NCBI GenBank assembly: GCA_938020525.1
Contig: CALIHW010000083.1
Coordinates: 1 to 60,785 of the forward strand
Length of the DNA: 60,785 nt
Source: an uncultured Granulosicoccaceae bacterium
Lineage (GTDB): Bacteria; Pseudomonadota; Gammaproteobacteria; Granulosicoccales; Granulosicoccaceae
Direction: 5' to 3'
Shown: positions 2,078 to 42,555 of the stretch, one piece after another
Layout: every line of letters starts with the position of its first letter
Position numbering within the stretch: position 1 is the stretch's first letter
Notes under the pieces: generated by a model
Databases searched by the model: none
What the model saw: only the letters and a program-made list of their open reading frames with translations
Told to the model about the DNA's origin: nothing
Position numbers and translations under genes: made by a program

Positions 2078-2131
2078 ACTATCTCCGATTTTCGCGTTAC
2101 TGATTCCCTTGGGTGTTTATTGAATGCAGTG

Positions 2132-2213: not shown

Positions 2214-2230
2214 TGTACTAGATATATGAC

Positions 2231-5377: not shown

Positions 5378-5790
5378 ATTTAAATCCTGGGAAATCGACA
5401 ACTTGCTTCTGCGAAGCAGATCATATTGTCGAAGAATAGGCTTTAGCGTGCAAGCCGATTTAACATTTGTAGTGTTAACAAGTGATTCTCGTTTGTCGCT
5501 CGGAGCATACTGATATGCGATAAAGTTGCTTTATTAACATGCTTCTTTTGTTTAAAGTATGCTGCTTAGCATAAGGCACTTCACCTGTTGCACCGAAAAT
5601 CACCCAGGTTGATTGTTGGGTCAATCTTCAATTAAATGTCGGCTACCAGGGAATGCTGGCGTGGTTATACTAAGCGGACAGGTGTAGCGACCCAAGCTTA
5701 TATTAAGGGCTCATATCAAGGGTTCGTGCATCAAGCCGCGTATTCATACCTGAATTCCATAAACTATGCCTAGCCCTAGCAGGAGTCCAC
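5378..5790. other. Divergent intergenic region with a hairpin
   Basis: About 410 bases separate the start of the SGNH-domain gene from the start of the enoyl-CoA-hydratase homologue, so promoters for both directions should lie here. A perfect stem-loop, TATGCT-GCTT-AGCATA, sits at 5558-5573, and a second small hairpin (GCTTC-TGC-GAAGC) at 5405-5417, just before the SGNH-domain gene. I see no coding sequence I can support. Confidence 0.4.
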
Positions 5791-8371: not shown

Positions 8372-11300
8372 TTACTGCCGAACGTTTCGCAGCACGGTTT
8401 TCTGACTTCGTCGCCGCAGAAAGACGCCGCTTGTTGCAGCTAGCAATATTAGCAGGGGATCAACCACCGGTTTGTCGGTAGAGTTTGCAGACCAGCTGCT
8501 GTAAACACTACATCCGCCATTGCCTCGCAGTCCGGTTTTTATGAATGCGCTGGCAGGCTCCACGACGTCATCTGTGCCATTGCCGTTATTGTCGGGTAAC
8601 GCCTCACCGATCGTCAGGCTATTTGATAATACCTCGGTAAAGCCGTCACCATTGGCATCCGGATCAGCAACATCTGTAATGCCATCGGCGTCTATATCTG
8701 ATCCACCGATAACGCTTGTGTCATACAGGTCATCGATGCTGTCTCCATCAGAGTCTTCACCACCGGTTATGTTTGAATCTACGCTATCTGGTATACCATC
8801 GAGGTCCGTGTCCTGCATTGAGTCGACTATACCGTCGTCACTCTGGTCTATCCCACCGGATTCGACCAAGTCGAAAATACCATCGTTGTCGGAATCAAGG
8901 TCTAATCGGTTGTATACACCATCTTCATCTGTGTCACGGCCTGCAGGATCTGTGATTTGGCTTTCATCGTCAGCGCCGTTGTTGTCGTTATCAATGAAGC
9001 TATCTATTCGGCCATTGTTGTCGTTGTCTGTTCCTCCACTTTCCAGAAGATCGGTGAGGCCGTCGTTGTCTGAGTCAAGGTCTTTGAAATCGGCAACCCG
9101 ATCATTGTCTGTGTCCACCAGCTCGAATGGAAATAGCTGCAGTTCATCAGACAAACCGTTGTTATCCTGATCTATAAAATTGTCTACACGGAAGTCATTG
9201 TCGCGGTCTTCACCCATCACCTCGATAATATCTGCTATACCGTCGTTATCACTGTCAAGGTCCAGAAAGTCCGGCAGACCATCGCTGTCTGTGTCGAGCG
9301 CCCCCTCGACCAGATCAGGAATACCATCATTGTCATCATCGAGGTCAACGGAATCGGGCACACCGTCGTTGTCAGAGTCAGCTAGTACAATACTTTGAAT
9401 GATTAAGTCTGCCGGTGTGCCAAGTGAAGTGTTACCGACTGCATCTGTAACTGTTACCTCTATCGGGAAAGTGCCTGCAGACAACGCAACTGGAATGTTT
9501 AGCGTCCAGGTTCCGTCTTCGTTGTCGAATAGATTGCCATCACCCGCAGTGTAACTTACGCCATTAACCGTGACTATTAGTGAGTCACCCGGAGCTGTAT
9601 TTGCGGTTCCTGATAGAGTTGGGGTAGTGTTAGTCGTTGTTAAAGATTCAGCTGTCGGTGGCACCGGTGCCGTGGTATCAATTATAAGCTCTGCTGTACC
9701 AGAATCGTTGGTAGTGTTGCCTGCAATATCCGTCACTGAAACGATTACATCGTAGACGCCTTCTGGTAGCTCTGTTGGCAGCACTAACATCCAGGTGCCG
9801 TCGCCGTTTATAATCAGGTTGCCGTCTCCCGCTGTATATAACACTCTACCCACAGTCACCGTTAATGTGTCTCCCGGGCTCAGTGCCGCGTTGCCGGTTA
9901 TAAGCGGTGTGGTGTCACTAGTTACTAAGGCATTGACTGATGGTGTTGCGGGTGGCGTGATATCAATGACTAGTTGATTGCTGCTGGTGTCAATGGTCTC
10001 GTTGCCTGCTGCGTCGGTCACTGAGACTATGATGTCGTAAATGCCTTCTGCCAGATCGAGTGGAACGGACAGCGCCCACGTGCCGTCACCATTGTCTATC
10101 AGATTCCCGTTTCCGGCAGTGTAAGTGACGCCATCAATAGTCACTGTAAGCAATTCACCCGGGCCGGCATTAGCTGTACCGAATATCACAGGCGTGGTGT
10201 CGTTAGTTTGCTGTGGAGTTACAGTAGGTATAGTCGGTGGGGTGGTATCAATCAACAATTCACCAGAACTCGGATCGGTAGTGCTGTTGCCCGCGATGTC
10301 AGTTATGGTGGCGGTAACATCGTATAAGCCTTCAATGAGTGGAGTAGAGATAGAGAGCATCCATGTGCCATCACCGTTGTCGATCAGGTTGCCATCATCA
10401 GTTGTATAAGTAGTGCCGTTGACGGTAACCGAAAGTGTCTCGCCAGGTGCTACGGTTGCGGTGCCTTCAATCACTGGTGTGGTGTTATTGGTAGTCAGGC
10501 TGGTGACCCCAGGGGCTGAAGGTGCTGTAAGATCTACAACTAAGTCATCGATGCCTGGGTCGCGTGATTGGTTGCCCGCTGCATCGGTCACCATAGCGAC
10601 AACCTGATACAGGTTTTCATCAAGTGAATTTGCAGCGGAGATGGTTAACGACCATGTGCCATCCCCGTTATTGAGCAGATTGCCGTCACCCTCGATATAA
10701 GTGACTCCGTTGACTTCTACGAAAAGCACTTCTCCGGGTTGAGTGATTGCGGTTCCTTCGATAATTGGTGTGGTATTCGTGGTGACTAGGCTGGTTACCC
10801 CGGGTGCGACTGGGGCAGTTAGATCAACTACAAGCTCACCTGCGGTAGTGTCACTGATAGCGTTACCTGCCATGTCGGTCACAGTTGCGATGACATCAGA
10901 TGAACCTTCTGGCAGAGGTGTTGGTATCGACAACGTCCATGTGCCATCACCATTGACGATCAGATTGCCATCGTCGGTGGTATAGGTAACACCATTGACA
11001 GTGACCGTTAGTGTTTCACCCAGATTTATAGTTGCTGTGCCACCAATAACCGGTGTGGTGTTGTTGCTGGTTTGTGCTGTTACTGTGGGGACGTCCGGCT
11101 GGAGTGTGTCAATCACCAGTTCATCAGTAGTGATGTCGACGGCTGTATTTGCTGCAGTATCAATAACGGTGGCAGTAACAGGATAAGTGTTGTTAGCCAA
11201 TGGTACCGGCAGTGTCAGTTCCCAGGTGCCGTCGCCGTTATCTACCAGGTTGCCGTCACCTGTTGAATAAGTGACACCACCAACCGTCACGCTGAGCGTT

Positions 11301-14300
11301 TCATCCGGTGCAACAGTGGCGGTGCCGGATACTATAGGCATAGGGTTATTTGTGATTTGTGTGGCTACCGAAGGAATCACCGGCGGGATAGTATCTACGA
11401 TTAACTCAGAGTTGCTGGTATCTGGGGTTGTATTGCCAGCCAAATCAGTGATGGTTGCTATGATTTCGTAAGTATCGTCTGCCAAAGGGTTAGAAGCAGG
11501 AATGACCAACTCCCACGTGCCATCCGGATTGACAACCAGATTTCCATCACCACTTGAGTAACTTACACCATCAACAGTTACAGTCAGTGTTTCACCGAGC
11601 GCTATTGAAGTAGTACCGGTAATTATCGGTGTTGTGTCACTGGTGGTCTGTGTGTCAACCACAGGTACCGATGGCGCGGTTAGATCTATCACCAGTTCAT
11701 CTGTACTTGAGTCAGTACTGGTGTTACCAGCAGCATCCGTTACAGAAGTAGTCACAGCGTAGGTACCTTCAGCTAACGGAGTTGGAATTGACAGGTCCCA
11801 GGTGCCGTCTCCATTGTCTATCAGATTGCCGTCTCCGGCCGTGTAAGTTATACCGTTTACCGTAACTGTGAGTGTTTCAGCCGGACCTGCGTTGGCAGCG
11901 CCGGAGATGACCGGAGTCGTGTCATTGGTTACCAGTGGTGTAGTAGCAGGAATGACCGGCGCAGTCGTATCGATCAGTAGCTCCAAGGCACTTGGGTCGG
12001 TATTGGAGTTGCCGGCACTGTCTGTAACAGTGGCAGTTACATCGTATGGGCCTTCAGGAATCTGTGTCTGGATAGAGAGAGCCCATGTGCCATTTCCGTT
12101 GTCGATCAAGCTGCCGTCGCCCGCGGCGTAAGTAATTGCATTAACTATAACAGTGAGTGTCTCACCCGATGCAATGATCGCCGTACCTTCTATTGTCGGC
12201 GTGGTGTCGTTTGTAGTCAGGCCGGTAACACCGGGTGTCACGGGGGCAGTGAGATCGACAAGCAAATCATCAACACCCGGATCGACAGCTTGGTTACCGG
12301 CTGCATCTGTTATTGTTGCTATTACCTGGTAGAGATCTTCTGCAAGAGCGTTGCTTGCCGGAACTGTAAGTGTCCAGGTGCCATCGCCGTTATCTGTAAG
12401 ATTGCCGTCACCGGCAGTGTAGGTAATTCCATCCACTGCAACAGTCAGTACTTCACCGGGCTGGACGCTGGCGGTACCCTCAATGACAGGCGTGATGTTA
12501 TTAGTTACCAGGCTGGTAACACCTGGTGCCGCAGGTGCAGTTACATCAATAATCAGCTCACCCGTGGTGGTATCACTGCCGACATTACCTGCCACGTCGG
12601 TGACTGAAACTGCAACATCATATGTTGTTTCAATCAGCGCTAAGGGAATGGAGAGAGACCATGTGCCATCATTGTTGTCGACCAGATTGCCGTCACCTTC
12701 GGTATAGGTGATGCCGTCTATCGTAACCGATAGGGTCTCGCCCGGTGCAACTGTCGCTGTGCCAATGACAAGCGGTGTCGTGTTGCTGGTAATCTGCGAT
12801 TCCACAGTTGGCAATATCGGTGGAGTCGTATCTATGACTAATTCGCCAGGCGTAACGTCGGTGGTTGAATTACCGGCCGGGTCTGTAACCGTGGCAACAA
12901 CTTCATATACACCTTCGTTCAGTGGTGCAGGTATAGAGAGTGTCCAGGTGCCATCACCGTTATCGATCAGGTTGCCATCACCAGCGGAGTAAGTAACGCC
13001 ACCTACGGTAACTGTAAGCGTCTCGCCTGGTGCCACAGTTGCGGTACCCGTAATAACGGGGGTAGTGTTGCTGGTATTTTGTGCAACAACGGTAGGCACA
13101 ACCGGTGCGATTGTGTCGACAACCAGTTCAGCGGAAGTAATATCAATACTGGAATTACCGGCGGCATCCAGTACGGTTACTGTTACAGGATAAGTGTTGT
13201 CAGCCAGTGGCGCAGGTAGTGTTAAATCCCATGTGCCATCACCGTTATCAATAAGATTGCCGTCACCGGCAGTATAGGTAACACCATCAACAGTGACTGT
13301 CAGTGTTTCACCAGGGCCCACAGTTGCGGTACCGGACAACACCGGTGTTGTGTTACTGGTGTTCTGCGATATTACAGTGGGTACTGGCGGTGGCTCGGTA
13401 TCTACAATTAACTCAGAGACAGTATTATCCGTAGTACTGTTACCAGCCAGATCGGTAATGGTGGCTGTAACCTCATAAGTACCATCAACGAGTGCAAGGC
13501 TGGCTGGAATAGTTAAATCCCAGGTGCCATCAGTATTGACTACCAGATTTCCGTCATCTGCCGTGTAAGTAATGCCATTTACTGTGACACTAAGAGTTTC
13601 ACCAGGTGTTGTTGAGGTGGCACCCGAGATCACCGGAGTTGTGTTATTGGTAGTTAATGTATTAACGGTAGGGACAACGGGTGCGGTGATATCTATAGTC
13701 AGTTCGTCCACACTGGTGTCGGTACTCACGTTGCCTGCCGCATCAGTGACAGAAACAGTCACCTCATAGGTGGCCTCTGGCAGCGCGGTCGGTATGATCA
13801 GATCCCATGTTCCGTCGCCATTGTCCACAAGATTTCCATCGCCCGCAGTATAGGTTACGCCACTGACAGTTACCGTAAGCGTTTCACCTGCTAAGACGGT
13901 AGCGGTACCTGTTATCACCGGTGTGGTATTGTTTGTGATTTGCGATACAGAGGTAGGAATAGCTGGTGCAGTAATGTCGACAATTAGTTCTGCAGCTGTT
14001 GCATCATTGCTGGCATTGCCCGCTGCATCTGTAACTGTCGCAACAACCTCAAATGGACCTTCCGCCAACGGTGTAGGTATAGAGAGTGTCCATGTGCCAT
14101 CGCCATTATTGACAAGGTTGCCATCACCAGCAGTGTAAGTTACTCCATCTACAGTTACTGTCAGCGTTTCACCCGGATTTACAGTGGCGGTGCCTGAGAT
14201 GACCGGTGTCGTGTCGTTTGTGATTAGTGGCGTTATACCTGGTGCAACTGGCGCGACTGTGTCGATGACGAGTTCAGCTGAAGTAGTATCGTTACTGGCA

Positions 14301-17300
14301 TTACCCGCAGCATCAAAAACAGTTACTGTCACAGGGTAAGTATTGTCAGCCAGTGCTACAGGCAATGTGAGATTCCACGTGCCATCACCGTTGTCAACCA
14401 GGTTGCTATCTCCTGCGGTGTAGGTGATACCGCCAACTGTGACTGTTAATGTTTCACCTGTATCTACAGTGACCATGCCAGATAATACCGGCATGTTATT
14501 GCTGGTGTTTTGAGAGACCACCGTCGGAACCACTGGCGGTGCTGTATCAATGATTAATTCGGACGCCGTGGTGTCGATTGTTGAATTGCCAGCCAGATCG
14601 GTGATAGTCGCTGTAACTTCATAGGTAGCATCAACGAGTGCATCGGTAGATGGAATAGTTAATTCCCAGGTACCGTCAGCATTGACCACTAGATTCCCGT
14701 CACCAGCAGTATAGGTAGCACTATTCACAACCACGGTCAGAGTTTCACCGGGCACGGTGGAGGTAGTACCCGAGAGTACAGGTGTGGTGTCATTAGTAAT
14801 TAATATATTAACTGTAGGGGTAATGGGTGCAGTGATATCTATAGTCAGCTCATCTACACTGGTATCGGTACTCACGTTGCCTGCCGCATCAGTGACAGTA
14901 GCAGTTACCTCATAGGTAGCTTCTGCCAGTGCAGCCGGTATAGTTAGATCCCAGGTTCCGTCACCATTGTCGAGCAGATCGCCGTCACCGGCTGTATAAG
15001 TTATACCATCGACGATGACAGTAAGTATTTCACCCGGGCCCGCATTAGAGGTACCCGAAATCACTGGTGTGGTATCGCTGGTGTGTTGCGTTGATACGGT
15101 TGGTGTCATTGGCGCTGTAGTATCAATGAGCAATTCACCGGAACTTGGGTCTGTACTCATGTTGCCTGCACCATCAGTAAGGGTGGCGGTAACATCATAC
15201 AAACCTTCGGTCGTGATGGTGGGAATCGAGAGCGTCCAGGTTCCATCACCGTTGTATACAAGATCGCCATTACCAGCTACGTAGATAACTCCATTGACAG
15301 TAACAGACAAGGTCTCACCAAGTGCGACACTAGCTGTACCTTCAACTACCGGTGTGGTGTCATTGGTAGTCAGGCTGGTGACACCCGGTGTGGCAGGTGC
15401 TGTCAAATCTACGAGTAAGTCATCAACACCAGGGTCAACCGCACTGTTACCAGCGGCATCGGTTACAGTTGCTAACACCTGATAGAGATTTTCCGCAAGT
15501 GTATTGGCAGGCGGAATGATCAGGGTCCATGTGCCATCACCATTGTCTGTAAGGTTTCCATCACCTGCGGTGTAGGTCACCCCATTGATCTCGACTGTGA
15601 GCACTTCACCGGCTTGGACCGTAGCAGTACCTTCAACAACAGGTGTGGTGTTTGTTGTAGCAAGACTGGTTACACCCGGCGCGATCGGAGCAGTTAAATC
15701 AATTATCAGTTCGTCAGCTGTGGTGTCATTGGTTGCATTGCCGGCCGGGTCAGTCACTGTGGTAGTGACCTCGTAAATCCCCTCAAGTAAAGCTGCTGGA
15801 ACAGAAAGCGCCCAGGTACCATCACCATTGTCGATAAGATATCCATCACCTGCGGTGTAAGTAACACCGTCAATAGTCACTGTCAGTGTGTCACCGGGGT
15901 TGACGGTAGCTGTGCCAGCGATCACCGGGCTGGGTGAATTAGTAGTCTGTGGAGTAACGCTTGGTGTGACAGGTGGCACGGTATCAATGGTTAATTCAAA
16001 TGCGGTAATATCATCACTGATGTTACCTGCTGCGTCACTGATTGTTGCGTCGACACTGTAGTTTCCATCCAGTAGTGCGGTAGGTATGTCGATATTCCAT
16101 GTGCCGTCACCATTGTCTATCAGAAAACCATCTCCCGTGGTGTAGGTAGTACCACCCACTGTTACAGTTAGCGTCTCTCCCGACCCGACTGTGGCCGTAC
16201 CTGAAATAAGCGGTGTTGGGTCATTGGTCGTTAGAAATGTAACTGTCGGCGTGACGGGTGGAGTGGTATCTATAGTTAATTCAAGTGTGGTTAAATCAAT
16301 TGCTGAATTACCTGCAGCATCAGTAACGGTTGCAGTAATGGTGTATACGTTGTCTGCCATCGCAACTGGAATATTAAGATTCCAGGTGCCATCGGTATTC
16401 AGAACAAGATCGCCACCTGCGGTTGTATACGTAAAATCAACCAGAGTGACGCTGAGGGTTTCACCAGCGCCTACCACTGCGGTTCCAGTAACAATCGGTG
16501 TTGTATCGTTGGTGATTTGTGAAACTACAGTGGGTATCTCAGGTGCAGTAGTGTCAATGGTAAGTTCAGCGGTGGTGACGTCGTCACTGGCATTGCCTGT
16601 CGCATCAACAACAGTCACTGTTATTGGGTATACATTGTCTGCAAGTGCTGCCGGTATTGTTAGATCCCATGTGCCGTCGCCGTTGTCTACCAGACTACCG
16701 TCACCATCCGTGTAGGTGACACCGTCTACAGTGACAGTCAGGGTCTCACCCGCTGCCACTGTAGCCTGGCCTGATAGTATTGGTGTCGTGTTACTGGTGA
16801 TTTGTGCAACTACGGTGGGAATTGCAGGCGGACTGGTATCTACAATTAACTCTGAAGCAGTAGTATCAGTAGAAGTATTGCCTGCTAAATCGGAGATAGT
16901 TGCAACGATTTCATAAGTACCATCAACAAGAGCGTCGCCAGCCGGGATAGTCAAACTCCATGTGCCGTCGGTGTTGACCACCAGTTTGCCGTCACCTGCT
17001 GTGTAGGTCACGCCATTAACGGTCACTGTGAGTGTTTCACCGGGCACAATAGATGTAGTACCTGATATCACGGGTGTGGTGTCATTGGTCGTCAGCGTAT
17101 TAACAACAGGGACAACTGGTACGGTTAAATCAATCACTAGCTCATCAATACCGGTGTCTGTGCTGATATTGCCAGCCGCATCCATTACTGAAGCAGTCAC
17201 TTCATAGATATTTTCAGCAAGCGGCACCGGAAAAGCCAGATCCCAGGTGCCGTCACCATTGTCGAGCAAATCACCGTCGCCTGCGGAATAAGTCACACCA

Positions 17301-20300
17301 TCGACAGTAACAGTTAGTATCTCTCCCGGACCGGCATTGGCTGTGCCGGAGATAACCGGCATAGGGTTATTGGTAACCAGTGGCGTTGTTGTTGGAACTA
17401 GCGGGGCTGTTGTATCAATTAACAGTTCAGTTGAACTCGGATCTGTACTGTTGTTACCTGCGCTATCAATAATTGTCGCAGTGACGTCATACACCCCTTC
17501 GTTTATGGGGGCCGGAATTAGCAGTGACCACGTACCGTCACCGTTGTCTGCCAGGTTGCCGTCACCTGCTGTATATGTTGTGCCGTTTACTGTCACAGTG
17601 AGTGTTTCACCTGGCAGGACAACAGCAGTGCCTTCAATTACGGGGGTCGTGTCGTTAGTGGTCAGGCTGGTAACACCCGGTGTCAGTGGTGCAGTAAGAT
17701 CAACCACCAGGTCATCAATCCCCGGGTCAACTGCGCTGTTACCCGCGGCGTCAGTCACTGTTGCAATGACTTGGTAAAGATTTTCTGCAAGTATATTGGT
17801 CGCAGGTATTGTCAGTGCCCATGTACCATCGCCATTGTCGACGAGATTGCCATCACCCACCATATAGGTAATGCCATCAACTTCGACGCTGAGTACCTCA
17901 CCAGGCTGAAGAGTTGCGGTGCCGTCAATGACCGGCGTTGTATCAGTGGTTGCAAGACTGGTGACTCCCGGTGCCGCGGGAGCAGTTAAATCAATAACTA
18001 ATTCACTGGCAGTAGTGTCATCGGTAGAGTTACCGGCCGGATCTGTGACTGTAGTAGTAACATCATAGGATCCTTCAGCCAGAGGTACCGGTACAGAAAG
18101 TTCCCATGTGCCGTCACCGTTATCTGCAAGATAACCATCACCTGCTGTATAGGTCACGCCATCAACAGTGACTGTCAATGTGTCACCGGGGGCAACTGTT
18201 GCAGTGCCGGTGATCACCGGGATGGTTGAATTGGTGCTCTGAGATGCCACCGTGGGTGTAACTGGTGCGATGGTATCAATGGTGAGTTCAAGAGCAGTGG
18301 TATCGTCGCTGGAATTCCCTGCAGCATCCGTTACAGTTGCTGTTACGCTGAAGTTGCCATCTGACAGTGCTGTTGGAATAGTGAGATCCCAGCTGCCATC
18401 AGTATTGACTAGCAGATTCCCGTCACCGGATGTGTAGGTGATACCGCCAACGGATACGGTCAGCGTTTCTCCTGCACCCACTGTTGCAGACCCTGAGATT
18501 ACTGGTGTGGTATTGCTTGTGGTTTGAAAGGTGACTGTGGGAACAGCGGGTACCGTGGTATCTATGATCAATTCATCGGCAGTACTGTCAGTTGCAGAGT
18601 TACCAGCGGCGTCTGTAACTGTGGCGGTAACACTGTAAGTTGATTCCGCCAGTGGAGCGGGTATGGCTAAATCCCAGTTACCATTGCCATTGTCAACAAG
18701 ATTTCCGTCGCCTGCTGTATAAGTCACACCGTTCACTGTGACGCTAAGCGTCTCTCCCAGCTCCACTGTTGCAGTGCCTGAAACTACCGGTGTCGTGTTA
18801 TTGGTGGTTTGAGCAGTGACTGTTGGAACAACAGGTGCTGTGGTATCGATGACCAGCTCATCACTACTGGTATCTGGAAATGCGTTACCGAAAATGTCGG
18901 TTACAGTCGCTATGACTTCGTAGGTATTGTCTGCCAGAGCTGAAGGTATGCTTAAAGTCCACGTACCACTACTGCTATATATCAGGTTGCCATCACCGGC
19001 TAGATAGGTAACACCGTTTACAGTTACCGTCAGCGTATCACCAGATCCAACCACAGCGTTACCTGTTATAGCAGGGGTCGTATCGCTGGTAGTTAAAAGC
19101 ACAACAGTCGGTGTTGAAAGAGGAATTGCCTGCACCAACAATTCATTAGTAGTGGCGTCGACTGAAACGTTACCAGCCGTATCAGTGACCGTTGCTGTGA
19201 CCTCATAGGTGCCTTCTGCCAAAGGTGTGGAAATAGCCAGAACCCATGTGCCATCACCATTGTCAGTCAGACTTCCATCTCCAGCGGTGTAGCTAATTCC
19301 GTCGACCGTTACGTTTAGCGTTTCACCAGCGGCGACTGTCGCGGTTCCAGATAAGATCGGCGTTGCATCACTGGTGGTTAAAGGTGTTACAACTGGTACG
19401 ATTGGCGGCGATGAATCTATGGTGAGCTCATCCGTAGTGGTATCAGTTCCACTTCCGCTACCGGAATGTATGATGGTGGCAGCGACGCTATAGATGCCAT
19501 CGGCAATGGTGTTAGCGGCCGGTATGGTTAGATCCCAGGTCCCATCACCATTATCGACCAGGTTGCCATCTCCTTCGGTATAGGTAACGCCGTTTACGGC
19601 AACTGTTAGCGTTTCATCAGCACTGACGTTTGCTGTGCCACTGATAACAGGTGTCCCGGTGTTAGCTATTTGCGATGTAACAGTTGGTACGTCGAGAATA
19701 ATCAGGTTAAATGTTTCCTGATAGGTAGCGGTATCCAGTTCATCGACGCCTGCACCATTGTTACTGTCTTCTATGACGCCATCACCATCGAGATCATCCG
19801 TATCGGTGTTTGTGCCGCTGACGGTGACTATGGCGGTGGTTGTCGCTGTGCCCGTTGCAGATAAATCGGCCAGTGCAGCATTGTCAACCTGCCAGTTACC
19901 ACCACCGAAGTTGGTGACTGTTCCAACGCTGGAGGTGAGGATAACGGTGGTTGGAACACCCGCGAGATCCAGGGTTTGCAGTTGTGTTTCTGATCCGTCT
20001 ACATCTGCTGAGTCACCAACACTGATCCCCAGGACTACCGGGTTGCCGATGTAACCAACGGCATTAGTAGCCGTTAACACCGGGGCGTCTACAACCGGTT
20101 CTACATGAACTGTGATCGAATCCTTTTCACCGGTAGATGACAGCAGAAGCTCAAGCAGGAGTTCGCCAGTACCATGTTCATTTGTTGAGATAGTTAACAG
20201 GGGGATGTCTGCGAAGTCCACTTCCCATCCGCCACCACTGATTGGTGAGCCATGTGACAAAACGCCGGTACCTGGAACGCCCTCGACCATGAAAGGTTCG

Positions 20301-22234
20301 CTACCCAACCACGAAACCTGTGTCGTACCGATATAGTCGGCAAACGCCCCTGTGCCTGCATTGGAAGTGGCAGTAAATTCGAGTGTACGTGTTCCGTCTG
20401 GGTTGTCTACTAATGTAAATCGCGCAGTCTCACCATAGTCGTCAGTGAAGTCACCGGCAGCTTTGTTACTTTGGAACAGTGGAATGCCACCGTTGGTAGC
20501 GCCGAACATGGTTGTACCCAGTGGTACACTTTGCCAGGCAACCAGATCCGGGGTTGTAGTTCTTGAGAAAGTGATCGATCCGGCACTTGTGTTGTTGTTA
20601 AGATCAATCACTGCGAAGCCGTAGCCGACGTTCTCGTTGTTCGAACTGCCGGCAAACGTTTGCCACGACATCTGCACGATACCAATCGAAGAGATTGCCG
20701 GCACTGCGAAGGTCTGGATGTTAATCGGCTTGCCGTTGCTGTCTACTCCGTCCGGCGGGTTGGAGTCAAACAGTGTAGTGTCACTTTCAACCCCGACAAA
20801 GCTTGCAATAGAACTCAGCCCGGTGCGGCGATAGTTTTCACTCGTGTACATGGTGGTAAATGCTGCCGCATGGCCGCTTTCACGTTCGACTATCAAATCA
20901 CCTGATGCATCGATGTAGATGGTGGGGTCATCTTCAATGCCGGCTACAGAGGCGGTTTCGTCACCAACACGAGTCGCGGTGCTATCGGTGATAGCTACCG
21001 GAATGGCCGCTGGTGTATCTCTTAAATCGATTAGCGGATAATCCAGAAAAGCCCAGGTAGTCACTCTTGAATCAAGCTCTCCACGTTCAGATGCTATGGC
21101 TCCTGAGACCGTGTCTGCTTGAAGGTCAATAACCAGTCGGCTGAAGCCCTTGTGTTCTTCTGCAAAGTGAGACCCGTCTGCAGCGCTGTTACCGGTCAGT
21201 ACGAGATAACCGTGCTTCGAGCCATCGGTCGGCTCGAGTGCTGCCGGTATGACAAAAGTGGATACAGATTCCCCCGGGTTTTGTACATCACCGGAACCAC
21301 TGACAAAGTCTGTGCTGTCGCCATCGGCTGTCATGTATTGTACGTGGTAGGCGATCTGCAGCGGAATGGTCTCGGTAATACGGAGTTGCCCGGCAACTAT
21401 CTCGATTAGCAGATCCGCAGCACCGGTCCAGTTGCCGCTGACAAAACTGGTATCGGTCAATACCGACTGACCCAAGGGAACGTTCAGCCAGGTGTACTGA
21501 TCAATGGTTCCGTTGTTTAAGTTAGGTGCGATGCTGTAGGTTAGGCGGCCGCTATAAGTGCCTTCACGCAAATCAACCGTTACATTTGACAACTCGTAGT
21601 CGTCGTTTTGCACGTCATTCTGATTTGTACCGACGTTACGTGTTGCGAAGCCGGTGATATTGATACCGGTTGAGCCGGATGGAATAATCGACGCGACTGC
21701 TGTGTCACTGCCATTTTCATCGCGATACAGTGCATCAACACCAATGATGTCCTGCAGCGTACCACCGAATTCAAGACTGGCGTCAACAGACAGATTTAAC
21801 GGTGTCGGTATATCTTCCTGTCCGATAATAAAATTATTGGCTGGTGTCAGAAAGTCGCTTGTAAGGACTACTTCAAAAGTGACTGTGGCTGTATCAATTC
21901 CGCCAGCTCCGTCATCAACCGAGTAAGTCAGCGTGTCTAAACTGGCGAAACCAATATTAGGCGTGTAATCGAGAAGCCCGTCAGGTGAGAGCGTCGCCGT
22001 GCCGTTAGACGGTTGTACGGTTATTAAATAGGTGTCAGTCGGCAGGTTTGTGTCATTCGCTGCCAGATCGTTTGCAAATACAGTCGTGTTGGATGGAACC
22101 AGCACATTGTCGTCAACCGCGATAGGTGCGGCCATCACCGCCATCGGTACGAGTAAGGCCAATACCACGAAATACCAGCGGAGTTTTAGAGCTGAGGTTC
22201 CGCTTCTATCTGCCGGGCATAAGTGGTTTGACAT
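8372..22234 (-). CDS. Giant secreted adhesin: 36 tandem Ig-like repeats, thrombospondin type-3 repeats, C-terminal sorting signal (4620 aa)
   Basis: A signal peptide (hydrophobic core YFVVLALLVPMAVMAA, residues ~20-36) is followed by a cadherin/VCBS-like domain (APIAVDDN...DYTPN...DTLTYSVDDG) and a ~700-residue N-terminal region of unknown fold. Residues ~845-4280 are 36 tandem ~95-residue Ig-like domains with the consensus TPVISGTATVxPGETLTV, VTYTAGDGNLVDNGDGTW and VTATVTDAAGN. Next, to ~4560, come aspartate-rich thrombospondin type-3/calcium-binding repeats (DSDNDGVPDSVDLDDDNDG). The tail carries GGCS, then DPLLILLAATSGVF, then RRR. This is the architecture of a CTERM sorting signal, closest to the JDVT-CTERM type, which implies processing by an intramembrane protease and surface anchoring or release. 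ATG at 22234 has AAGGA eight bases upstream. The likely role is a Ca-stiffened surface adhesin or biofilm matrix protein. Repeats are diverged enough in DNA to be stable, but show block duplications. Confidence 0.9.
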   Translation of the reverse strand: MSNHLCPADRSGTSALKLRWYFVVLALLVPMAVMAAPIAVDDNVLVPSNTTVFANDLAANDTNLPTDTYLITVQPSNGTATLSPDGLLDYTPNIGFASLDTLTYSVDDGAGGIDTATVTFEVVLTSDFLTPANNFIIGQEDIPTPLNLSVDASLEFGGTLQDIIGVDALYRDENGSDTAVASIIPSGSTGINITGFATRNVGTNQNDVQNDDYELSNVTVDLREGTYSGRLTYSIAPNLNNGTIDQYTWLNVPLGQSVLTDTSFVSGNWTGAADLLIEIVAGQLRITETIPLQIAYHVQYMTADGDSTDFVSGSGDVQNPGESVSTFVIPAALEPTDGSKHGYLVLTGNSAADGSHFAEEHKGFSRLVIDLQADTVSGAIASERGELDSRVTTWAFLDYPLIDLRDTPAAIPVAITDSTATRVGDETASVAGIEDDPTIYIDASGDLIVERESGHAAAFTTMYTSENYRRTGLSSIASFVGVESDTTLFDSNPPDGVDSNGKPINIQTFAVPAISSIGIVQMSWQTFAGSSNNENVGYGFAVIDLNNNTSAGSITFSRTTTPDLVAWQSVPLGTTMFGATNGGIPLFQSNKAAGDFTDDYGETARFTLVDNPDGTRTLEFTATSNAGTGAFADYIGTTQVSWLGSEPFMVEGVPGTGVLSHGSPISGGGWEVDFADIPLLTISTNEHGTGELLLELLLSSTGEKDSITVHVEPVVDAPVLTATNAVGYIGNPVVLGISVGDSADVDGSETQLQTLDLAGVPTTVILTSSVGTVTNFGGGNWQVDNAALADLSATGTATTTAIVTVSGTNTDTDDLDGDGVIEDSNNGAGVDELDTATYQETFNLIILDVPTVTSQIANTGTPVISGTANVSADETLTVAVNGVTYTEGDGNLVDNGDGTWDLTIPAANTIADGIYSVAATIIHSGSGSGTDTTTDELTIDSSPPIVPVVTPLTTSDATPILSGTATVAAGETLNVTVDGISYTAGDGSLTDNGDGTWVLAISTPLAEGTYEVTATVTDTAGNVSVDATTNELLVQAIPLSTPTVVLLTTSDTTPAITGNAVVGSGDTLTVTVNGVTYLAGDGNLIYSSSGTWTLSIPSALADNTYEVIATVTDIFGNAFPDTSSDELVIDTTAPVVPTVTAQTTNNTTPVVSGTATVELGETLSVTVNGVTYTAGDGNLVDNGNGNWDLAIPAPLAESTYSVTATVTDAAGNSATDSTADELIIDTTVPAVPTVTFQTTSNTTPVISGSATVGAGETLTVSVGGITYTSGDGNLLVNTDGSWDLTIPTALSDGNFSVTATVTDAAGNSSDDTTALELTIDTIAPVTPTVASQSTNSTIPVITGTATVAPGDTLTVTVDGVTYTAGDGYLADNGDGTWELSVPVPLAEGSYDVTTTVTDPAGNSTDDTTASELVIDLTAPAAPGVTSLATTDTTPVIDGTATLQPGEVLSVEVDGITYMVGDGNLVDNGDGTWALTIPATNILAENLYQVIATVTDAAGNSAVDPGIDDLVVDLTAPLTPGVTSLTTNDTTPVIEGTAVVLPGETLTVTVNGTTYTAGDGNLADNGDGTWSLLIPAPINEGVYDVTATIIDSAGNNSTDPSSTELLIDTTAPLVPTTTPLVTNNPMPVISGTANAGPGEILTVTVDGVTYSAGDGDLLDNGDGTWDLAFPVPLAENIYEVTASVMDAAGNISTDTGIDELVIDLTVPVVPVVNTLTTNDTTPVISGTTSIVPGETLTVTVNGVTYTAGDGKLVVNTDGTWSLTIPAGDALVDGTYEIVATISDLAGNTSTDTTASELIVDTSPPAIPTVVAQITSNTTPILSGQATVAAGETLTVTVDGVTYTDGDGSLVDNGDGTWDLTIPAALADNVYPITVTVVDATGNASDDVTTAELTIDTTAPEIPTVVSQITNDTTPIVTGTAVVGAGETLSVTLVDFTYTTAGGDLVLNTDGTWNLNIPVAMADNVYTITATVTDAAGNSAIDLTTLELTIDTTPPVTPTVTFLTTNDPTPLISGTATVGSGETLTVTVGGTTYTTGDGFLIDNGDGTWNIDIPTALLDGNYSVDATISDAAGNISDDITAFELTIDTVPPVTPSVTPQTTNSPSPVIAGTATVNPGDTLTVTIDGVTYTAGDGYLIDNGDGTWALSVPAALLEGIYEVTTTVTDPAGNATNDTTADELIIDLTAPIAPGVTSLATTNTTPVVEGTATVQAGEVLTVEINGVTYTAGDGNLTDNGDGTWTLIIPPANTLAENLYQVLATVTDAAGNSAVDPGVDDLLVDLTAPATPGVTSLTTNDTTPVVEGTASVALGETLSVTVNGVIYVAGNGDLVYNGDGTWTLSIPTITTEGLYDVTATLTDGAGNMSTDPSSGELLIDTTAPMTPTVSTQHTSDTTPVISGTSNAGPGEILTVIVDGITYTAGDGDLLDNGDGTWDLTIPAALAEATYEVTATVTDAAGNVSTDTSVDELTIDITAPITPTVNILITNDTTPVLSGTTSTVPGETLTVVVNSATYTAGDGNLVVNADGTWELTIPSTDALVDATYEVTATITDLAGNSTIDTTASELIIDTAPPVVPTVVSQNTSNNMPVLSGMVTVDTGETLTVTVGGITYTAGDSNLVDNGDGTWNLTLPVALADNTYPVTVTVFDAAGNASNDTTSAELVIDTVAPVAPGITPLITNDTTPVISGTATVNPGETLTVTVDGVTYTAGDGNLVNNGDGTWTLSIPTPLAEGPFEVVATVTDAAGNASNDATAAELIVDITAPAIPTSVSQITNNTTPVITGTATVLAGETLTVTVSGVTYTAGDGNLVDNGDGTWDLIIPTALPEATYEVTVSVTDAAGNVSTDTSVDELTIDITAPVVPTVNTLTTNNTTPVISGATSTTPGETLSVTVNGITYTADDGNLVVNTDGTWDLTIPASLALVDGTYEVTATITDLAGNSTTDNTVSELIVDTEPPPVPTVISQNTSNTTPVLSGTATVGPGETLTVTVDGVTYTAGDGNLIDNGDGTWDLTLPAPLADNTYPVTVTVLDAAGNSSIDITSAELVVDTIAPVVPTVVAQNTSNTTPVITGTATVAPGETLTVTVGGVTYSAGDGNLIDNGDGTWTLSIPAPLNEGVYEVVATVTDPAGNSTTDVTPGELVIDTTPPILPTVESQITSNTTPLVIGTATVAPGETLSVTIDGITYTEGDGNLVDNNDGTWSLSIPLALIETTYDVAVSVTDVAGNVGSDTTTGELIIDVTAPAAPGVTSLVTNNITPVIEGTASVQPGEVLTVAVDGITYTAGDGNLTDNGDGTWTLTVPASNALAEDLYQVIATITDAAGNQAVDPGVDDLLVDLTAPVTPGVTGLTTNDTTPTIEGTAIIASGETLTVIVNAITYAAGDGSLIDNGNGTWALSIQTQIPEGPYDVTATVTDSAGNSNTDPSALELLIDTTAPVIPATTPLVTNDTTPVISGAANAGPAETLTVTVNGITYTAGDGNLIDNGDGTWDLSIPTPLAEGTYAVTTSVTDAAGNTSTDSSTDELVIDLTAPSVPVVDTQTTSDTTPIITGTTSIALGETLTVTVDGVSYSSGDGNLVVNPDGTWELVIPASNPLADDTYEIIATITDLAGNTTPDTSNSELIVDTIPPVIPSVATQITNNPMPIVSGTATVAPDETLSVTVGGVTYSTGDGNLVDNGDGTWELTLPVPLANNTYPVTATVIDTAANTAVDITTDELVIDTLQPDVPTVTAQTSNNTTPVIGGTATINLGETLTVTVNGVTYTTDDGNLIVNGDGTWTLSIPTPLPEGSSDVIATVTDMAGNAISDTTAGELVVDLTAPVAPGVTSLVTTNTTPIIEGTAITQPGEVLFVEVNGVTYIEGDGNLLNNGDGTWSLTISAANSLDENLYQVVAMVTDAAGNQSRDPGIDDLVVDLTAPSAPGVTSLTTNNTTPVIEGTATVAPGETLSVTVNGTTYTTDDGNLIDNGDGTWMLSISTPLIEGLYDVTATITDIAGNSTTDPSSGELLIDTTPPTIPTVTPQQTNDTTPVIFGTANAGPGELLTVTIDGVTYTAGNGNLIDNGDGTWALSVPLDLAEGIYDIIVSVTDAAGNETIDTSSNQLVIDITPPATPSVNALVTSDTTPLITGNAALSPGDTLTVTVGRVLYTAGDGNLIINGDGTWMLVLPTELPEGVYDVIVSVTDIAGNTTNDSGTAELIIDTTAPVPPTAESLTTTNTTPTLSGTANTAPGDSLIVTVNGVSYTAGDGNLFDNEDGTWTLNIPVALSAGTFPIEVTVTDAVGNTSLGTPADLIIQSIVLADSDNDGVPDSVDLDDDNDGIPDLVEGALDTDSDGLPDFLDLDSDNDGIADIIEVMGEDRDNDFRVDNFIDQDNNGLSDELQLFPFELVDTDNDRVADFKDLDSDNDGLTDLLESGGTDNDNNGRIDSFIDNDNNGADDESQITDPAGRDTDEDGVYNRLDLDSDNDGIFDLVESGGIDQSDDGIVDSMQDTDLDGIPDSVDSNITGGEDSDGDSIDDLYDTSVIGGSDIDADGITDVADPDANGDGFTEVLSNSLTIGEALPDNNGNGTDDVVEPASAFIKTGLRGNGGCSVYSSWSANSTDKPVVDPLLILLAATSGVFLRRRSQKTVLRNVRQ
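9395..19700 (-). repeat. 36 tandem ~286-bp repeats within the giant adhesin gene
   Basis: Each unit encodes one ~95-residue Ig-like domain; I counted 36. The units are not all equivalent. A run of recognisable subtypes recurs in order. One type begins APGVTSLATT and carries AVDPGxDDL; the next begins TPGVTSLTTNDTTP and carries STDPSSxELL; the next has GTANAGPGE; the next GTTSxxPGE; the next is of the PTVVxQxTSN type. This run appears four times, at domains 7-11, 15-19, 26-30 and 32-34. Domains 5-6 also resemble domains 13-14. The array therefore grew by duplication of multi-domain blocks of roughly 2 kb as well as single units. Confidence 0.85.
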
Positions 22235-37692: not shown

Positions 37693-38667
37693 TCAGCCTT
37701 GCCCGATTAGTATCCCTGCTGCCAGAACAAGTACCCCGCCAAGAATAATCTGCAACATCGCTTTCACCCACGGTGTTTCCATATATTTGTGTTGTATCCA
37801 TGTGATCACAAATAGTTCGAGCGCAACAATAACGAATGCTACGTAAGTTGCTGTCCAGAAGTCAGGGATCAAATATGGCAGTGCATGTCCCAGGCCGCCA
37901 ATAGTTGTCATGACGCCGGTAACGATACCGCGAGTGATAGGAGAGCCGCGCCCGGAGATCACGCCATCATCTGAGGCAACCTCTGTGAAGCCCATTGATA
38001 TACCAGCACCGACTGAAGCCGCCACACCAACCAGGAATGTAGTCCAGGTATTTTGTGTCGCGAAGGCGGTGGCAAATATTGGTGCGAGCGTCGAGATCGA
38101 ACCGTCAATCAATCCTGCAAGACCGGGTTGTACGTAAGTTAAAACAAATTGCCTGTGAGCGGCTGCTTGTTCGGATTCAAGTGCACCGCCAGTCTTTTGT
38201 TCTTCGGCAAGTGAGTTCGACATTTCCTTGTGTTCTGCTTCCGCCGCTGCGAGATCGCCCAGCAGTTTTCGGGTTCCAGCATCCGTGCTGGTTCGGGCTG
38301 CACGCTCATAAAAAGCCTGCGCAACAGTTTCCATGGCCTCAGCTTCTGCACGCATTTGTGCAAGACCCAGATTTTCAGCAAGCCATGTTGGCTTGCGGGC
38401 ATAGAATCCGGAAACATGTTCACGTCTGATAAGGGGTACTACTTCACCAAACCGCTCTGCGTGCTGGTCAAGCAGAACACGACGATGCTCATCCTCCTCG
38501 GCAGCCATTTCTTCAAACATGGTTGCCGACTCCGGGAAGTCCTGCCGGAGTGACTGTGCAAAGCCTCGGTAGATACGCGCGTCGTCCTCTTCAGAGGAGA
38601 TGGCGAGGGCCAGAACCTGCTGTTCGCTCAGGTCTGAAAAGCGTCTGCGGGATGCGAAAGAGAACAA
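37693..38667 (-). CDS. mbfA: MbfA-type membrane-bound ferritin: rubrerythrin domain fused to a VIT1/CCC1 iron transporter
   Basis: The N-terminal ~150 residues are a ferritin-like four-helix domain with di-iron ligands (SSEEDDARIY, MAAEEDEHRRVL, AEAEAMETVAQAFYERAA, AAAEAEHKEM). The C-terminal half (residues ~175-325) is a CCC1/VIT1-type transporter (PGLAGLIDGSISTLAPIFA, GAGISMGFTEV) with about five membrane helices. The family exports ferrous iron from the cytoplasm, and in rhizobia protects against iron and peroxide stress under Irr control. I place the start at the TTG at 38667, which has AGGA seven bases upstream; a TTG two codons earlier would sit too close to that site. It stands alone on its strand. 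Confidence 0.88.
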   Translation of the reverse strand: MFSFASRRRFSDLSEQQVLALAISSEEDDARIYRGFAQSLRQDFPESATMFEEMAAEEDEHRRVLLDQHAERFGEVVPLIRREHVSGFYARKPTWLAENLGLAQMRAEAEAMETVAQAFYERAARTSTDAGTRKLLGDLAAAEAEHKEMSNSLAEEQKTGGALESEQAAAHRQFVLTYVQPGLAGLIDGSISTLAPIFATAFATQNTWTTFLVGVAASVGAGISMGFTEVASDDGVISGRGSPITRGIVTGVMTTIGGLGHALPYLIPDFWTATYVAFVIVALELFVITWIQHKYMETPWVKAMLQIILGGVLVLAAGILIGQG

Positions 38668-38837
38668 ATGCAATTCCTGTTAATTTTTTTTTGATAAGTG
38701 CAGTGGCTGCTACGTGCTTAAGGGTACTCGCCGTGCGTATTAGCGAGCTGGTAAGATGAGTGTTATCTTGTCTGAACTTTACGAGCTTGCAGTAAAAGTA
38801 TACAGCAAAAATCTGAATTTAATTTGCAGAGGAATCC

Positions 38838-40911: not shown

Positions 40912-41361
40912 ATGACTCGTCTGTCAGCAATATTTGTATTGGTCGTAACAGCAATATTTGTAAGTGTTAGCGGTTTTGCCAGTGACTCTGATACAGATCA
41001 CCGTGTGGCGATTCATGTGGATGAGAATGACCCGGCAACAATGAATCTGGCGCTAAACAACATTGCCAATATCAAAAAATACTATGACTCAAAGGGTGAA
41101 ACGATAGCAATAGAGCTGGTTGCCTATGGGCCAGGTCTGCATATGTTTCGTTCAGATACTTCGCCAGTGAAAGACAGGCTATCAGTTATGTCTCTTGAAT
41201 TTGATAATCTGACATTCTCAGCATGTGGCAACACGCATCACAATATGTCCAAGAAAGCAGGTAAAGATATCGAGCTGGTAGAGGAAGTGACTATGGTGCC
41301 TTCAGGTGTGGTTCAGTTAATAGAATTGCAAGAGGAAGGCTACGCATACGTAAGACCTTAA
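40912..41361 (+). CDS. Periplasmic DsrE/DsrF-like protein (149 aa)
   Basis: A signal peptide (LSAIFVLVVTAIFVSVSGFA) is followed by a DsrE-fold domain: RVAIHVDENDPATMNLALNN, IELVAYGPGLHMF, and FSACGNTHHNM with the conserved Cys (near 103) used for sulfur or thiol chemistry in this family. It ends with VPSGVVQLIELQEEGYAYVRP, the usual closing strand and helix. Single-domain secreted DsrE-like proteins are common near thioredoxin or sulfur-redox genes, and the gene beside it, in convergent orientation, encodes a thioredoxin-like protein. AGGAAA stands eight bases before the ATG. Role in periplasmic sulfur or thiol transfer is inference. Confidence 0.82.
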   Translation: MTRLSAIFVLVVTAIFVSVSGFASDSDTDHRVAIHVDENDPATMNLALNNIANIKKYYDSKGETIAIELVAYGPGLHMFRSDTSPVKDRLSVMSLEFDNLTFSACGNTHHNMSKKAGKDIELVEEVTMVPSGVVQLIELQEEGYAYVRP

Positions 41362-41421: not shown

Positions 41422-41443
41422 GACGAGGCACGATTGCCTCGTC
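41422..41443. terminator. Bidirectional terminator-like hairpin between convergent genes
   Basis: A perfect nine-base stem GACGAGGCA-CGAT-TGCCTCGTC sits between the convergent DsrE-like and thioredoxin-like genes. On the minus strand a run of six T follows about ten bases later. Confidence 0.55.
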
Positions 41444-41475: not shown

Positions 41476-41883
41476 TTAGCTTGCAGCTACTGCTGCAAAT
41501 AATGCTTCAATGGCTTGTGTGGACGTCTGCGCGATCACACGATCTACTTCTTTGCCTTCGTTAAACATGATAAGTGTTGATCTTCTTCGAATACCGAGTT
41601 CAGATACAATTTCATCACGCTTGTGGTCGTCCCAGTTCACTTTCATGACTGTGACATTCTGGTACTTAGGGTTACCTTCTATTAGTGCACTCACGGTGCG
41701 CTCTTGAGCTCGGCAAGTCCCTCACCAGGGGGCAAAAAAATCGAGCAGCAAAGGCTCGCCACTCGCGAGCGCTTCTTCATACGCCTCCCGAGAGTAGTCC
41801 ACGAATTTGCCTTCTCCAGCCCAGCTGGTAGCCGGGGCAGCGATAGCAATTGCGGACAGTGTCAGGAACTGTCGTCTTTTCAT
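41476..41883 (-). CDS. Thioredoxin-like exported protein with in-frame TGA at the first active-site Cys: candidate selenoprotein (135 aa)
   Basis: From the ATG at 41883 (GAGGA six bases upstream) the protein starts MKRRQFLTLSAIAIA, a Tat-like signal peptide. It reads EPLLLDFFAPW, then TGA (41724-41722, codon 54), then GTCRAQERTVSALI and on in the same frame to a natural stop at 41476. The thioredoxin active site is W-C-x-x-C; here the first Cys position is the TGA, giving W-Sec-G-T-C if read as selenocysteine. The part after the TGA stays intact for 81 codons with a good thioredoxin fold (VTVMKVNWDDHKRDEI, IRRRSTLIMFNEGKEV). Just downstream of the TGA in the mRNA (41702-41684) a stem AGCGCAC/GTGCACT with one mismatch closes a five-base CGTGA loop, at the distance expected for a bacterial SECIS. 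A nonsense mutation (TGC to TGA) or sequence error is the alternative. Confidence 0.65.
41684..41702 (-). promoter_or_regulatory. Candidate bacterial SECIS stem-loop
   Basis: In mRNA sense the arms are AGCGCAC and GTGCACT (six of seven pairs) and the loop is CGTGA. The loop starts 27 bases after the TGA and has G as its second base. Known bacterial SECIS elements have a short apical loop with a G in its first two positions about 16-37 bases after the UGA. The stem is short, so this is only suggestive. Confidence 0.4.
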
Positions 41884-42234
41884 AATGATCCTCTTGAATG
41901 ATCCTGTGGGGTTACATTTCAAAAATCAGACCCGCTGTATGCGGGCTTAGCTCAATAATAACTCAAAATCAGCCATTTTTACTCGAATGGTTGTAAAGAG
42001 TGGTGTCTCTGACCGCTGGATTCACAGTTAGTGCCACCTCGAGGCGTCAATTGGTCCGCTGCCTTGGTTGTAGAAACTATAAAAGATAAGGCGCTTGACT
42101 TTGCAGTCGGTGACTTTGTCACAGACAAATTTCTGACAAAGCTAGGCCGTTAACATCTGTCTGATTTGTTATACAGGTTAGGCTTCGTTAAACCAAAAAA
42201 CTGGTGTGGCTTAAATTGTAGATTGACAATATAA
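41884..42234. other. Intergenic stretch with a possible gene tail
   Basis: On the plus strand, about 42016-42153, an open frame without a proper start ends in DKALDFAVGDFVTDKFLTKL and a stop. Its composition is protein-like, so it may be the tail of a lost gene, but I do not recognise it. The promoter of the thioredoxin-like gene should also lie here. Confidence 0.3.
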
Positions 42235-42555
42235 AAGCAAATCGCATTTGATGACTTTGGAACCGGGTATTCAAATCTGGTCTATCTGCATCACTATCCC
42301 ATCCGGTGTTTGAAAATAGATCGCTCGTTCATTATGCGGCTGGAGACAGCCAAACCTATCGTTGAGCTGATCATCTCTATGGCGCGGCTTTTCAAGCTTG
42401 ATGTTGTGGCAGAGGGAGTTGAAACACAGGAGCAGCTTGATGTACTGAAAAGTCACGATTGTCAGGAGTATCAGGGCTACTTTTTTGAAAAGCCCATAGA
42501 ATTTTCCGCATTCTCGAATTTGCTGCTGAGTTTGGTAACGAAGCAAGCTGCCTGA
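42235..42555 (+). pseudogene. C-terminal relic of an EAL-domain (c-di-GMP phosphodiesterase) gene
   Basis: Directly after a TAA at 42232, the frame reads QIAFDDFGTGYSNLVYLHHY, then KIDRSFIMRL, VVAEGVETQEQLDVL and YQGYFFEKPIEFS. These are the conserved second-half motifs of the EAL fold: the metal-binding DD, the catalytic Lys of KID, the Glu of AEGVET and QGY. The N-terminal half with the EAL motif itself, and any sensor domains, are missing, so it cannot be an active enzyme. An ATG at 42310 would give an 81-residue fragment. It is probably a remnant left by a deletion. Confidence 0.8.

What the first reader, a model, noticed from the sequence alone, without database searches (positions are those of the whole stretch)
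41476..41883. Candidate selenoprotein: Tat-exported thioredoxin with W-Sec-G-T-C active site
Seen: one frame runs from ATG 41883 to a stop at 41476, broken only by TGA at 41724-41722, exactly where the first Cys of WCxxC should be. The 81 codons after it keep a thioredoxin fold and no other lesion. A stem-loop with a CGTGA loop lies 20-38 bases downstream of the TGA. Known: UxxC thioredoxin-like selenoproteins exist in bacteria and need SelA/B/C/D. Inferred: the TGA is decoded as selenocysteine. A Cys-to-TGA point mutation is the rival explanation.
Basis: partly seen in the sequence, partly recalled or inferred. Interest (0 to 1): 0.85.

Follow-up and report, generated by a model that had tools for sequence, protein, structure and literature searches.

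The report
Exported selenium-containing thioredoxin-like redox protein
A bacterium very probably reads a stop codon inside this gene as the rare amino acid selenocysteine, making an exported thioredoxin-like redox protein; the trick is known, but this protein group, with hints of a later return to ordinary cysteine, was not found in the papers searched.

Summary
Observation confirmed; interpretation supported. Window 41883-41476 (-) is one frame broken only by TGA 41724-41722, at the first Cys of W-C-x-x-C. The assembly has selA, selB, selD, tRNA-Sec and a paralogue with TGA at the same codon. Of 48 family genomes, 17 carry TGA-type genes (23 genes) and 15 only Cys types; selA is in 15 of 17 versus 1 of 15. 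The loop CGTG[AC] begins 26 nt after the TGA in 23 of 23; synonymous codons there are frozen in TGA genes, free in Cys homologues. Six of 23 also end with TGA, against a general code change. The product has a Thioredoxin fold, a twin-arginine start and Ser where thioredoxins have cis-Pro. A CcdA-type membrane carrier accompanies the gene (30 of 32 genomes with it, 0 of 16 without) but was not found in the window's own assembly. Three Cys members fall inside the TGA clade, hinting at Sec-to-Cys reversion (AU p 0.065, 0.36, 0.067: not decisive). Sec-thioredoxins are known; this is a new member of that kind. Selenium insertion itself is inferred.

The parts
41476..41883 (-). Sec-thioredoxin-like CDS, 135 residues with TGA read as Sec
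41722..41724 (-). In-frame TGA, read as Sec (residue 54), aligned with the first Cys of CxxC in 22 homologues
41713..41715 (-). Second active-site Cys (residue 57), invariant in the 44-row alignment
41684..41702 (-). SECIS-like hairpin: 7-position stem (one C.A mismatch here), loop CGTGA at 41695-41691
41818..41883 (-). Predicted Tat signal peptide MKRRQFLTLSAIAIAAPATSWA (RR at residues 3-4)
   Evidence: no signal predictor run, cleavage site judged by eye
41575..41589 (-). R-R-R-S-T loop (residues 99-103); Ser102 stands where thioredoxins have cis-Pro
41889..41894 (-). AGAGGA, Shine-Dalgarno-like, 5 nt before the ATG
   Evidence: read by eye

Best explanation
The gene encodes a selenoprotein: UGA at codon 54 is decoded as selenocysteine by SelB and tRNA-Sec, directed by a short hairpin whose loop begins 26 nt downstream. 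The protein is exported folded by the Tat route and works in the periplasm as a thioredoxin-fold thiol-disulfide (selenenylsulfide) reductant with a U-x-x-C site. In most of its family it is kept reduced by a small CcdA-type membrane carrier. In the window's genome, where no such carrier was found in a 93%-complete assembly, the full-length DsbD (contig C127) or an unassembled CcdA would do this. Shown computationally: the frame, the conservation, the RNA-level constraint, the decoding machinery, the fold, and the CcdA linkage. Inferred: that selenium is inserted, that Tat exports it, the direction of electron flow, and the substrates.
For: Machinery in the same assembly: selA (C48:67323-68420, E 2e-151), selB (C48:70224-72149, 385 bits), tRNA-Sec (C161, 73 bits, anticodon TCA), selD (C222, 234 bits). 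Second own paralogue with TGA at the same codon, 60% identical. 23 TGA genes in 17 of 48 family genomes; selA in 15/17 TGA genomes vs 1/15 Cys genomes, selB over cut-off 15/17 vs 0/15, tRNA-Sec 16/17 vs 2/15. Loop CGTG[AC] starting 26 nt after TGA in 23 of 23. Codons +9, +10, +11 identical in every same-residue pair of TGA genes (expected 0.30, 0.26, 0.18); mean excess at +6..+13 0.509 (8 columns) vs 0.069 (79 other columns), and 0.043 at the same stretch in Cys homologues. A model of the hairpin finds only the two own Trx genes in the genome at E<=10 (150 of 1836 candidates scored). Six of 23 genes end with TGA. Fold: mean pLDDT 88, block means 95-98 over residues 31-130; PDB matches are thioredoxins and thioredoxin-like proteins. 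RR near the start in every gene. CcdA-type gene in 30 of 32 genomes with a close Trx homologue and 0 of 16 without, next ORF on the same strand at 18 of 22 Cys loci.
Against: Two TGA genomes lack selA and a selB over cut-off (G003, G012; G012 has tRNA-Sec, G003 has a sub-cut-off selB-like piece and no tRNA-Sec found); both are draft assemblies. The hairpin is thermodynamically ordinary, its minimal 19-nt form only -5.0 kcal/mol. Covariation is thin: one pair with 4 double changes; the number of such pairs and of pair types do not exceed shuffles (308/500 and 500/500). The CcdA-type gene was not found in the window's own genome, and in genus g1 it is not next to the Trx gene. No expression or selenium data.
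Confidence: 0.87

Rival explanations
1. The TGA is an ordinary stop from a Cys-to-TGA point mutation or a sequencing error, leaving a dead or truncated gene.
For: A single in-frame stop is what one base change would give.
Against: The same TGA occurs in 23 distinct genes of 17 genomes; coding after it stays under purifying selection; the synonymous-site freeze after it is seen in TGA genes and not in Cys genes; a paralogue in the same genome has it too.
Confidence: 0.02
2. TGA is read through as tryptophan or another ordinary residue (changed code or plain readthrough).
For: The downstream frame is maintained.
Against: Six of 23 genes use TGA as their own terminal stop; the residue is Cys in the 22 non-TGA homologues, never Trp; genomes of the TGA type mostly have the Sec machinery and the others mostly do not.
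Confidence: 0.02
3. Sec is inserted, but the protein is not a CcdA/DsbD-fed periplasmic reductase: for instance it acts on the oxidising side or handles metal.
For: Ser replaces cis-Pro in 43 of 45 members, with Arg two places before it in 44 of 45; cis-Pro is thought to help keep metals off CxxC (PMC2757866 passage). No CcdA-type gene found in the window's genome. In a Paracoccus plasmid a Cys homologue lies in a gene run with DUF2282, DUF692 and a sigma-70 family factor; bufferins, made by DUF692/MNIO enzymes, chelate copper (abstract starts; that DUF2282 is a bufferin precursor is recalled).
Against: Co-occurrence with the CcdA-type gene in 30 of 32 against 0 of 16 genomes; the two-residue redox site is kept in every member collected.
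Confidence: 0.2

Closest known systems
Sec-containing thioredoxins, UxxC, Pfam PF00085 (listed as experimentally verified in PMC13188914, passages seen)
   Same: Thioredoxin fold, Sec at the first position of the CxxC motif, bacterial SECIS-type hairpin just after the UGA.
   Different: This one has a Tat-type signal peptide and no cis-Pro, and scores 57.9 bits against the 96.8 cut-off of the thioredoxin equivalog TIGR01068. The listed representative was not compared by sequence.
Trx-like 1/2/3 selenoproteins of the GOS metagenomes (PMC2398784, passages seen)
   Same: UxxC Trx-fold selenoproteins from marine metagenomes; 321, 22 and 212 sequences.
CcdA-partnered thiol oxidoreductases such as CcmG/ResA (PMC4491210, passages seen)
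   Same: Exported Trx-fold protein; a small DsbD_TM-type membrane protein as likely reductant.
   Different: No cytochrome-maturation gene recognised beside it among the neighbours scanned (most neighbours were not scanned); Tat-type start; Sec; Ser for cis-Pro.
Cys-type 'thioredoxin family protein' beside 'cytochrome c biogenesis protein CcdA' in Methylobacterium indicum (L192)
   Same: W-C-x-x-C, S-T-L after the loop, RR near the start, CcdA directly downstream.
   Different: Cys instead of Sec; 36% identical.

Membership tests
Bacterial selenoprotein | In-frame TGA aligned with a redox Cys in homologues | tested here: met
   23 TGA and 22 TGC/TGT genes at one column
Bacterial selenoprotein | bSECIS model: loop 3-9 nt, stem 4-16 bp, G in the first two loop positions, 16-37 nt from UGA (criteria from PMC13188914 passage) | tested here: met
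   Loop CGTGA (5 nt, G second), 26 nt spacing in 23 of 23; in L147 and L148 a local scan prefers another fold
Bacterial selenoprotein | SECIS energy at or below -7.5 kcal/mol (same source) | tested here: inconclusive
   -9.1 for the 43-nt form, -5.0 for the minimal 19-nt hairpin
Bacterial selenoprotein | SelA, SelB, SelC, SelD in the genome | tested here: met
Bacterial selenoprotein | Selenium present in the product | not testable with these tools
   needs 75Se labelling or mass spectrometry
Thioredoxin (TrxA-type) | Thioredoxin fold / Pfam PF00085 | tested here: met
   7e-15; model and PDB matches
Thioredoxin (TrxA-type) | cis-Pro before the third core strand | tested here: not met
   Ser in 43, Gly in 1, Ala in 1 of 45 members
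Thioredoxin (TrxA-type) | Curated equivalog score (TIGR01068, 96.8 bits) | tested here: not met
   57.9 bits; so it is a Trx-fold protein, not filed as TrxA
Tat substrate | Twin-arginine signal peptide | tested here: met
   KRRQFLTLS here; RR in all 45 collected genes. The script preferred start codons that give RR near the start, and the motif is recalled; no predictor run
Tat substrate | Export through TatABC | not testable with these tools
   needs an export assay; tat genes were not searched for
CcdA-dependent periplasmic thioredoxin | Genetic link to a CcdA-type carrier across the family | tested here: met
   30 of 32 with, 0 of 16 without
CcdA-dependent periplasmic thioredoxin | Carrier in the window's own genome | tested here: not met
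   no match at E<=1e-15 in G000; an 838-aa DsbD-like protein is present

The most novel reading that the evidence does not exclude
A periplasmic selenolate-thiolate protein without the cis-Pro guard, whose conserved R-R-S-T loop lets the Sec-Cys pair bind or hand over a soft metal (for example copper) or a metal cluster under oxidative or metal stress, rather than only reducing disulfides. Its lineage gained Sec once and then lost it again by Sec-to-Cys reversion in at least one branch.
Probability: 0.12. Interest if true: 0.72.

Novelty: new member of a known kind. Interest (0 to 1): 0.45.

Why it matters
It adds an exported, Tat-signalled branch to the Sec-thioredoxins in a gammaproteobacterial family (probably Granulosicoccaceae), with duplicate copies and close Cys relatives side by side. 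That makes the question 'why Sec rather than Cys' testable on natural pairs. The possible Sec-to-Cys reversion would be a case outside FdhA and SelD, to which PMC13188914 (passage) says documented cases are primarily limited. The frozen synonymous codons give a clean comparative signature of a SECIS element, and genes like this are easily annotated as two fragments.

Tried and rejected
Rfam at gathering threshold found nothing in the window, so no curated family reached its score for this hairpin. Folding energy against shuffles gave no support. Covariation is weak because the element is almost invariant; two of five measures do not exceed shuffles. A hairpin-model search of the own genome for further selenoproteins gave only the two genes already known; 150 of 1836 candidates were scored and the model's 17 sequences include both. 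A class-wide sample of 369 genomes found homologues in 8 (own included) at E<=1e-15; none of the other 7 had a TGA. Of 80 loci kept (120 found) I used 8 (L045-L052); the other 72, weaker matches, were not examined for TGA. Of 76 plasmid records matched (15 listed) I looked at 2. The window copy's neighbourhood shares no gene cluster with the other loci; the larA-containing block is beside other copies, which I took as synteny, not function. AU tests for one TGA clade: p 0.065 (Trx), 0.36 (CcdA), 0.067 (joined), so reversion is favoured, not proven. Rejected: point mutation, sequencing error, general TGA reassignment. The codon stretch +6..+13 was chosen after seeing the alignment; the Cys homologues at the same columns are the control. 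The E 1e-20 line that sorts genomes into TGA, Cys and none was mine; G023 (partial match, 1e-11, with a TAG) falls under none.

Full report
Observation. On the minus strand, 41883-41476 is a single frame of 135 codons plus stop, interrupted only by TGA at 41724-41722. With the TGA read through, Pfam finds Thioredoxin at 7e-15 over residues 29-127.

Machinery. The window is contig C83 of a 4.53-Mb, 224-contig assembly estimated 93% complete. The same assembly has SelA (C48:67323-68420, 504 bits), SelB (C48:70224-72149, 385 bits), SelD (C222:16504-17421, 234 bits) and tRNA-Sec (C161, 73 bits; ARAGORN calls it tRNA-SeC, anticodon TCA). It also holds a second paralogue, 60% identical, with TGA at the same codon (C72:28444-28833).

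Relatives. The 48 genomes returned for the taxonomic family (own included) were searched. Counting matches better than 1e-20 (my line), 17 genomes carry a TGA-type gene, 15 only a Cys type, and 16 no close homologue. SelA is in 15/17, 1/15 and 1/16 of these; SelB over cut-off in 15/17, 0/15, 1/16; tRNA-Sec in 16/17, 2/15, 1/16. Counts and Fisher tests are (TGA against Cys: 7e-6, 2e-7, 5e-6; the genomes are related, so these are not independent trials). The exceptions among TGA genomes are G003 (no selA, no tRNA-Sec, selB only below the cut-off) and G012 (no selA, no selB over cut-off, tRNA-Sec present); both are drafts.

SECIS. I collected 23 distinct TGA genes and 22 Cys genes: 15 Cys genes from the family and 7 from the 80 loci; L045, a duplicate of L131, was dropped from the counts. 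One TGA gene (G008, L143) was flagged with an extra TAA, which is its own final stop. The loop CGTG[AC] begins 26 nt after the TGA in 23 of 23, inside the 16-37 nt of the published model, with G second in a 5-nt loop (model: passage of PMC13188914). In the structure count over 21 distinct rows, one stem pair changes on both sides (G-C to A-U, 4 rows), two others on one side only, three never vary, and the C.A mismatch of the window's version is C-G in 6 rows. Percentage paired, cells with a double change and covariation score exceed all 500 shuffles; the number of doubly changed pairs and of pair types do not. In L147 and L148 a local scan preferred another hairpin. The strongest evidence is at synonymous sites. 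Where two TGA genes share an amino acid at codons +9, +10 or +11 they always share the codon (expected 0.30, 0.26, 0.18). Mean excess identity at +6..+13 is 0.509 against 0.069 elsewhere (rank test 1.5e-7), while Cys homologues show 0.043 at the same stretch. The stretch was picked after seeing the alignment; the Cys genes are the control. Energy alone does not distinguish the hairpin from shuffles.

Not another code. Six of 23 TGA genes also end with TGA. The 22 homologues without TGA have Cys there. pN/pS after the TGA is 0.41 (0.34 before it in the mature part; synonymous sites near saturation), so the downstream part is under purifying selection.

The protein. The AlphaFold model from 44 aligned sequences has mean pLDDT 88, with block means of 95-98 over residues 31-130. 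The listed PDB matches are thioredoxins or thioredoxin-like proteins. RR occurs near the start of every collected gene; start codons were chosen by a script that preferred RR near the start, and the Tat motif is recalled, so export is an inference. At the position of the thioredoxin cis-Pro there is Ser in 43 of 45, Gly in 1, Ala in 1, with Arg two places before in 44 of 45 and one place before in 37 of 45. That proline is thought to form part of the substrate site and may keep metals off the CxxC site (passage of PMC2757866). No NCBIfam model reaches its cut-off. It is therefore a Trx-fold selenoprotein, not a TrxA.

Partner. A 237-aa DsbD_TM/CcdA-type protein (Pfam on the L149 copy) is the next ORF on the same strand at 18 of 22 Cys loci and 3 of 24 TGA rows. 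Across genomes it is present in 15/17 TGA, 15/15 Cys and 0/16 without the Trx. In the 12 fetched loci of the genera g1 and g2 it sits elsewhere, in 10 of 12 on the same strand as a VIT/VWA-type protein and a sortase (Pfam on the L165 copies). In the window's own genome it was not found; a full DsbD-like protein is present. A Methylobacterium plasmid shows the Cys-type Trx and CcdA as neighbours. [quoted passage not shown] substrates are unknown.

Evolution. All 23 TGA genes and three Cys genes (G038, G039, G041) form one group (100/99, midpoint-rooted). In the Trx tree the three Cys genes lie in an eight-row clade (99/96) with five TGA genes, four of genus g4 and one of G008; inner forks are weaker (88/51, 92/75). 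In the CcdA tree they group with G003 (93/91), and in the joined tree too (99/95; long-branch warning for L049). Holding the TGA genes together is not rejected (p 0.065, 0.36, 0.067). Since both TGA groups share one near-identical hairpin, one gain of Sec and a later return to Cys is the simplest reading; G041 still has selA and tRNA-Sec. A 2026 review says documented Sec-to-Cys cases are primarily FdhA and SelD (passage of PMC13188914).

Literature. Sec-thioredoxins (UxxC, PF00085) and several Trx-like UxxC selenoprotein groups are in print (passages of PMC13188914, PMC2398784, PMC1088965). Searches for Granulosicoccus with selenocysteine gave 0 papers; twin-arginine with selenoprotein and thioredoxin gave 2, CcdA with selenoprotein and periplasmic gave 6, judged from listings and abstract starts not to concern this. 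Neither PMC13188914 nor the deep-Sep paper PMC12013277 holds the word Granulosicocc-. The library is open-licence papers only, and the Trx-like sequence sets of the metagenome papers were not seen, so absence is not proof.

Verdict. A real selenoprotein gene, about 0.96 likely to be Sec-decoded; its role as a CcdA/DsbD-fed periplasmic reductant about 0.65. A new member of a known kind.

Noticed in passing
L007, L130, L133-L138, L140, L141: Ten other Sec-Trx loci, including the own C72 copy, lie in a shared block with a LarA gene and a FAD/NAD reductase (Pfam) and three further clusters that I recognise from recall as LarB/C/E-like; a GFA-domain gene lies nearby in many. The window copy is outside this block.
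   Followed up: partly
L165-L176: The CcdA-type gene is on the same strand as a VIT/VWA-type gene and a sortase gene in 10 of 12 fetched loci.
   Followed up: partly
L191 (Paracoccus plasmid) 792-5612: A Cys homologue lies in a run with DUF2282, DUF692, DoxX, sigma-70 family and DUF1109 genes, which from recall resembles copper-linked bufferin clusters.
   Followed up: no
40912-41361 (+): DsrE-family protein (1.8e-5) with a hydrophobic start, convergent with the Sec-Trx gene.
   Followed up: no
41422-41443: Inverted repeat GACGAGGCA-ATCG-TGCCTCGTC between the two convergent genes, a T-run a little further on; the terminator scan did not list it.
   Followed up: no
42310-42555 (+): 81-aa ORF matching only the end of an EAL domain (profile 173-236 of 236), probably a gene remnant.
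   Followed up: no
8372-22234 (-): A 4620-aa ORF with 28 matched stretches of a bacterial Ig-like domain (Big_13) and a cadherin-like domain near its start, a giant adhesin-like protein.
   Followed up: no
37693-38673 (-): Protein with an N-terminal Rubrerythrin match and a VIT1-family match near its end.
   Followed up: no
G022 and G017: G022 (Cys type) has tRNA-Sec but no selA and no selB over cut-off; G017 has selA, selB and tRNA-Sec but no close Trx homologue, so other selenoproteins may exist in these genomes.
   Followed up: no
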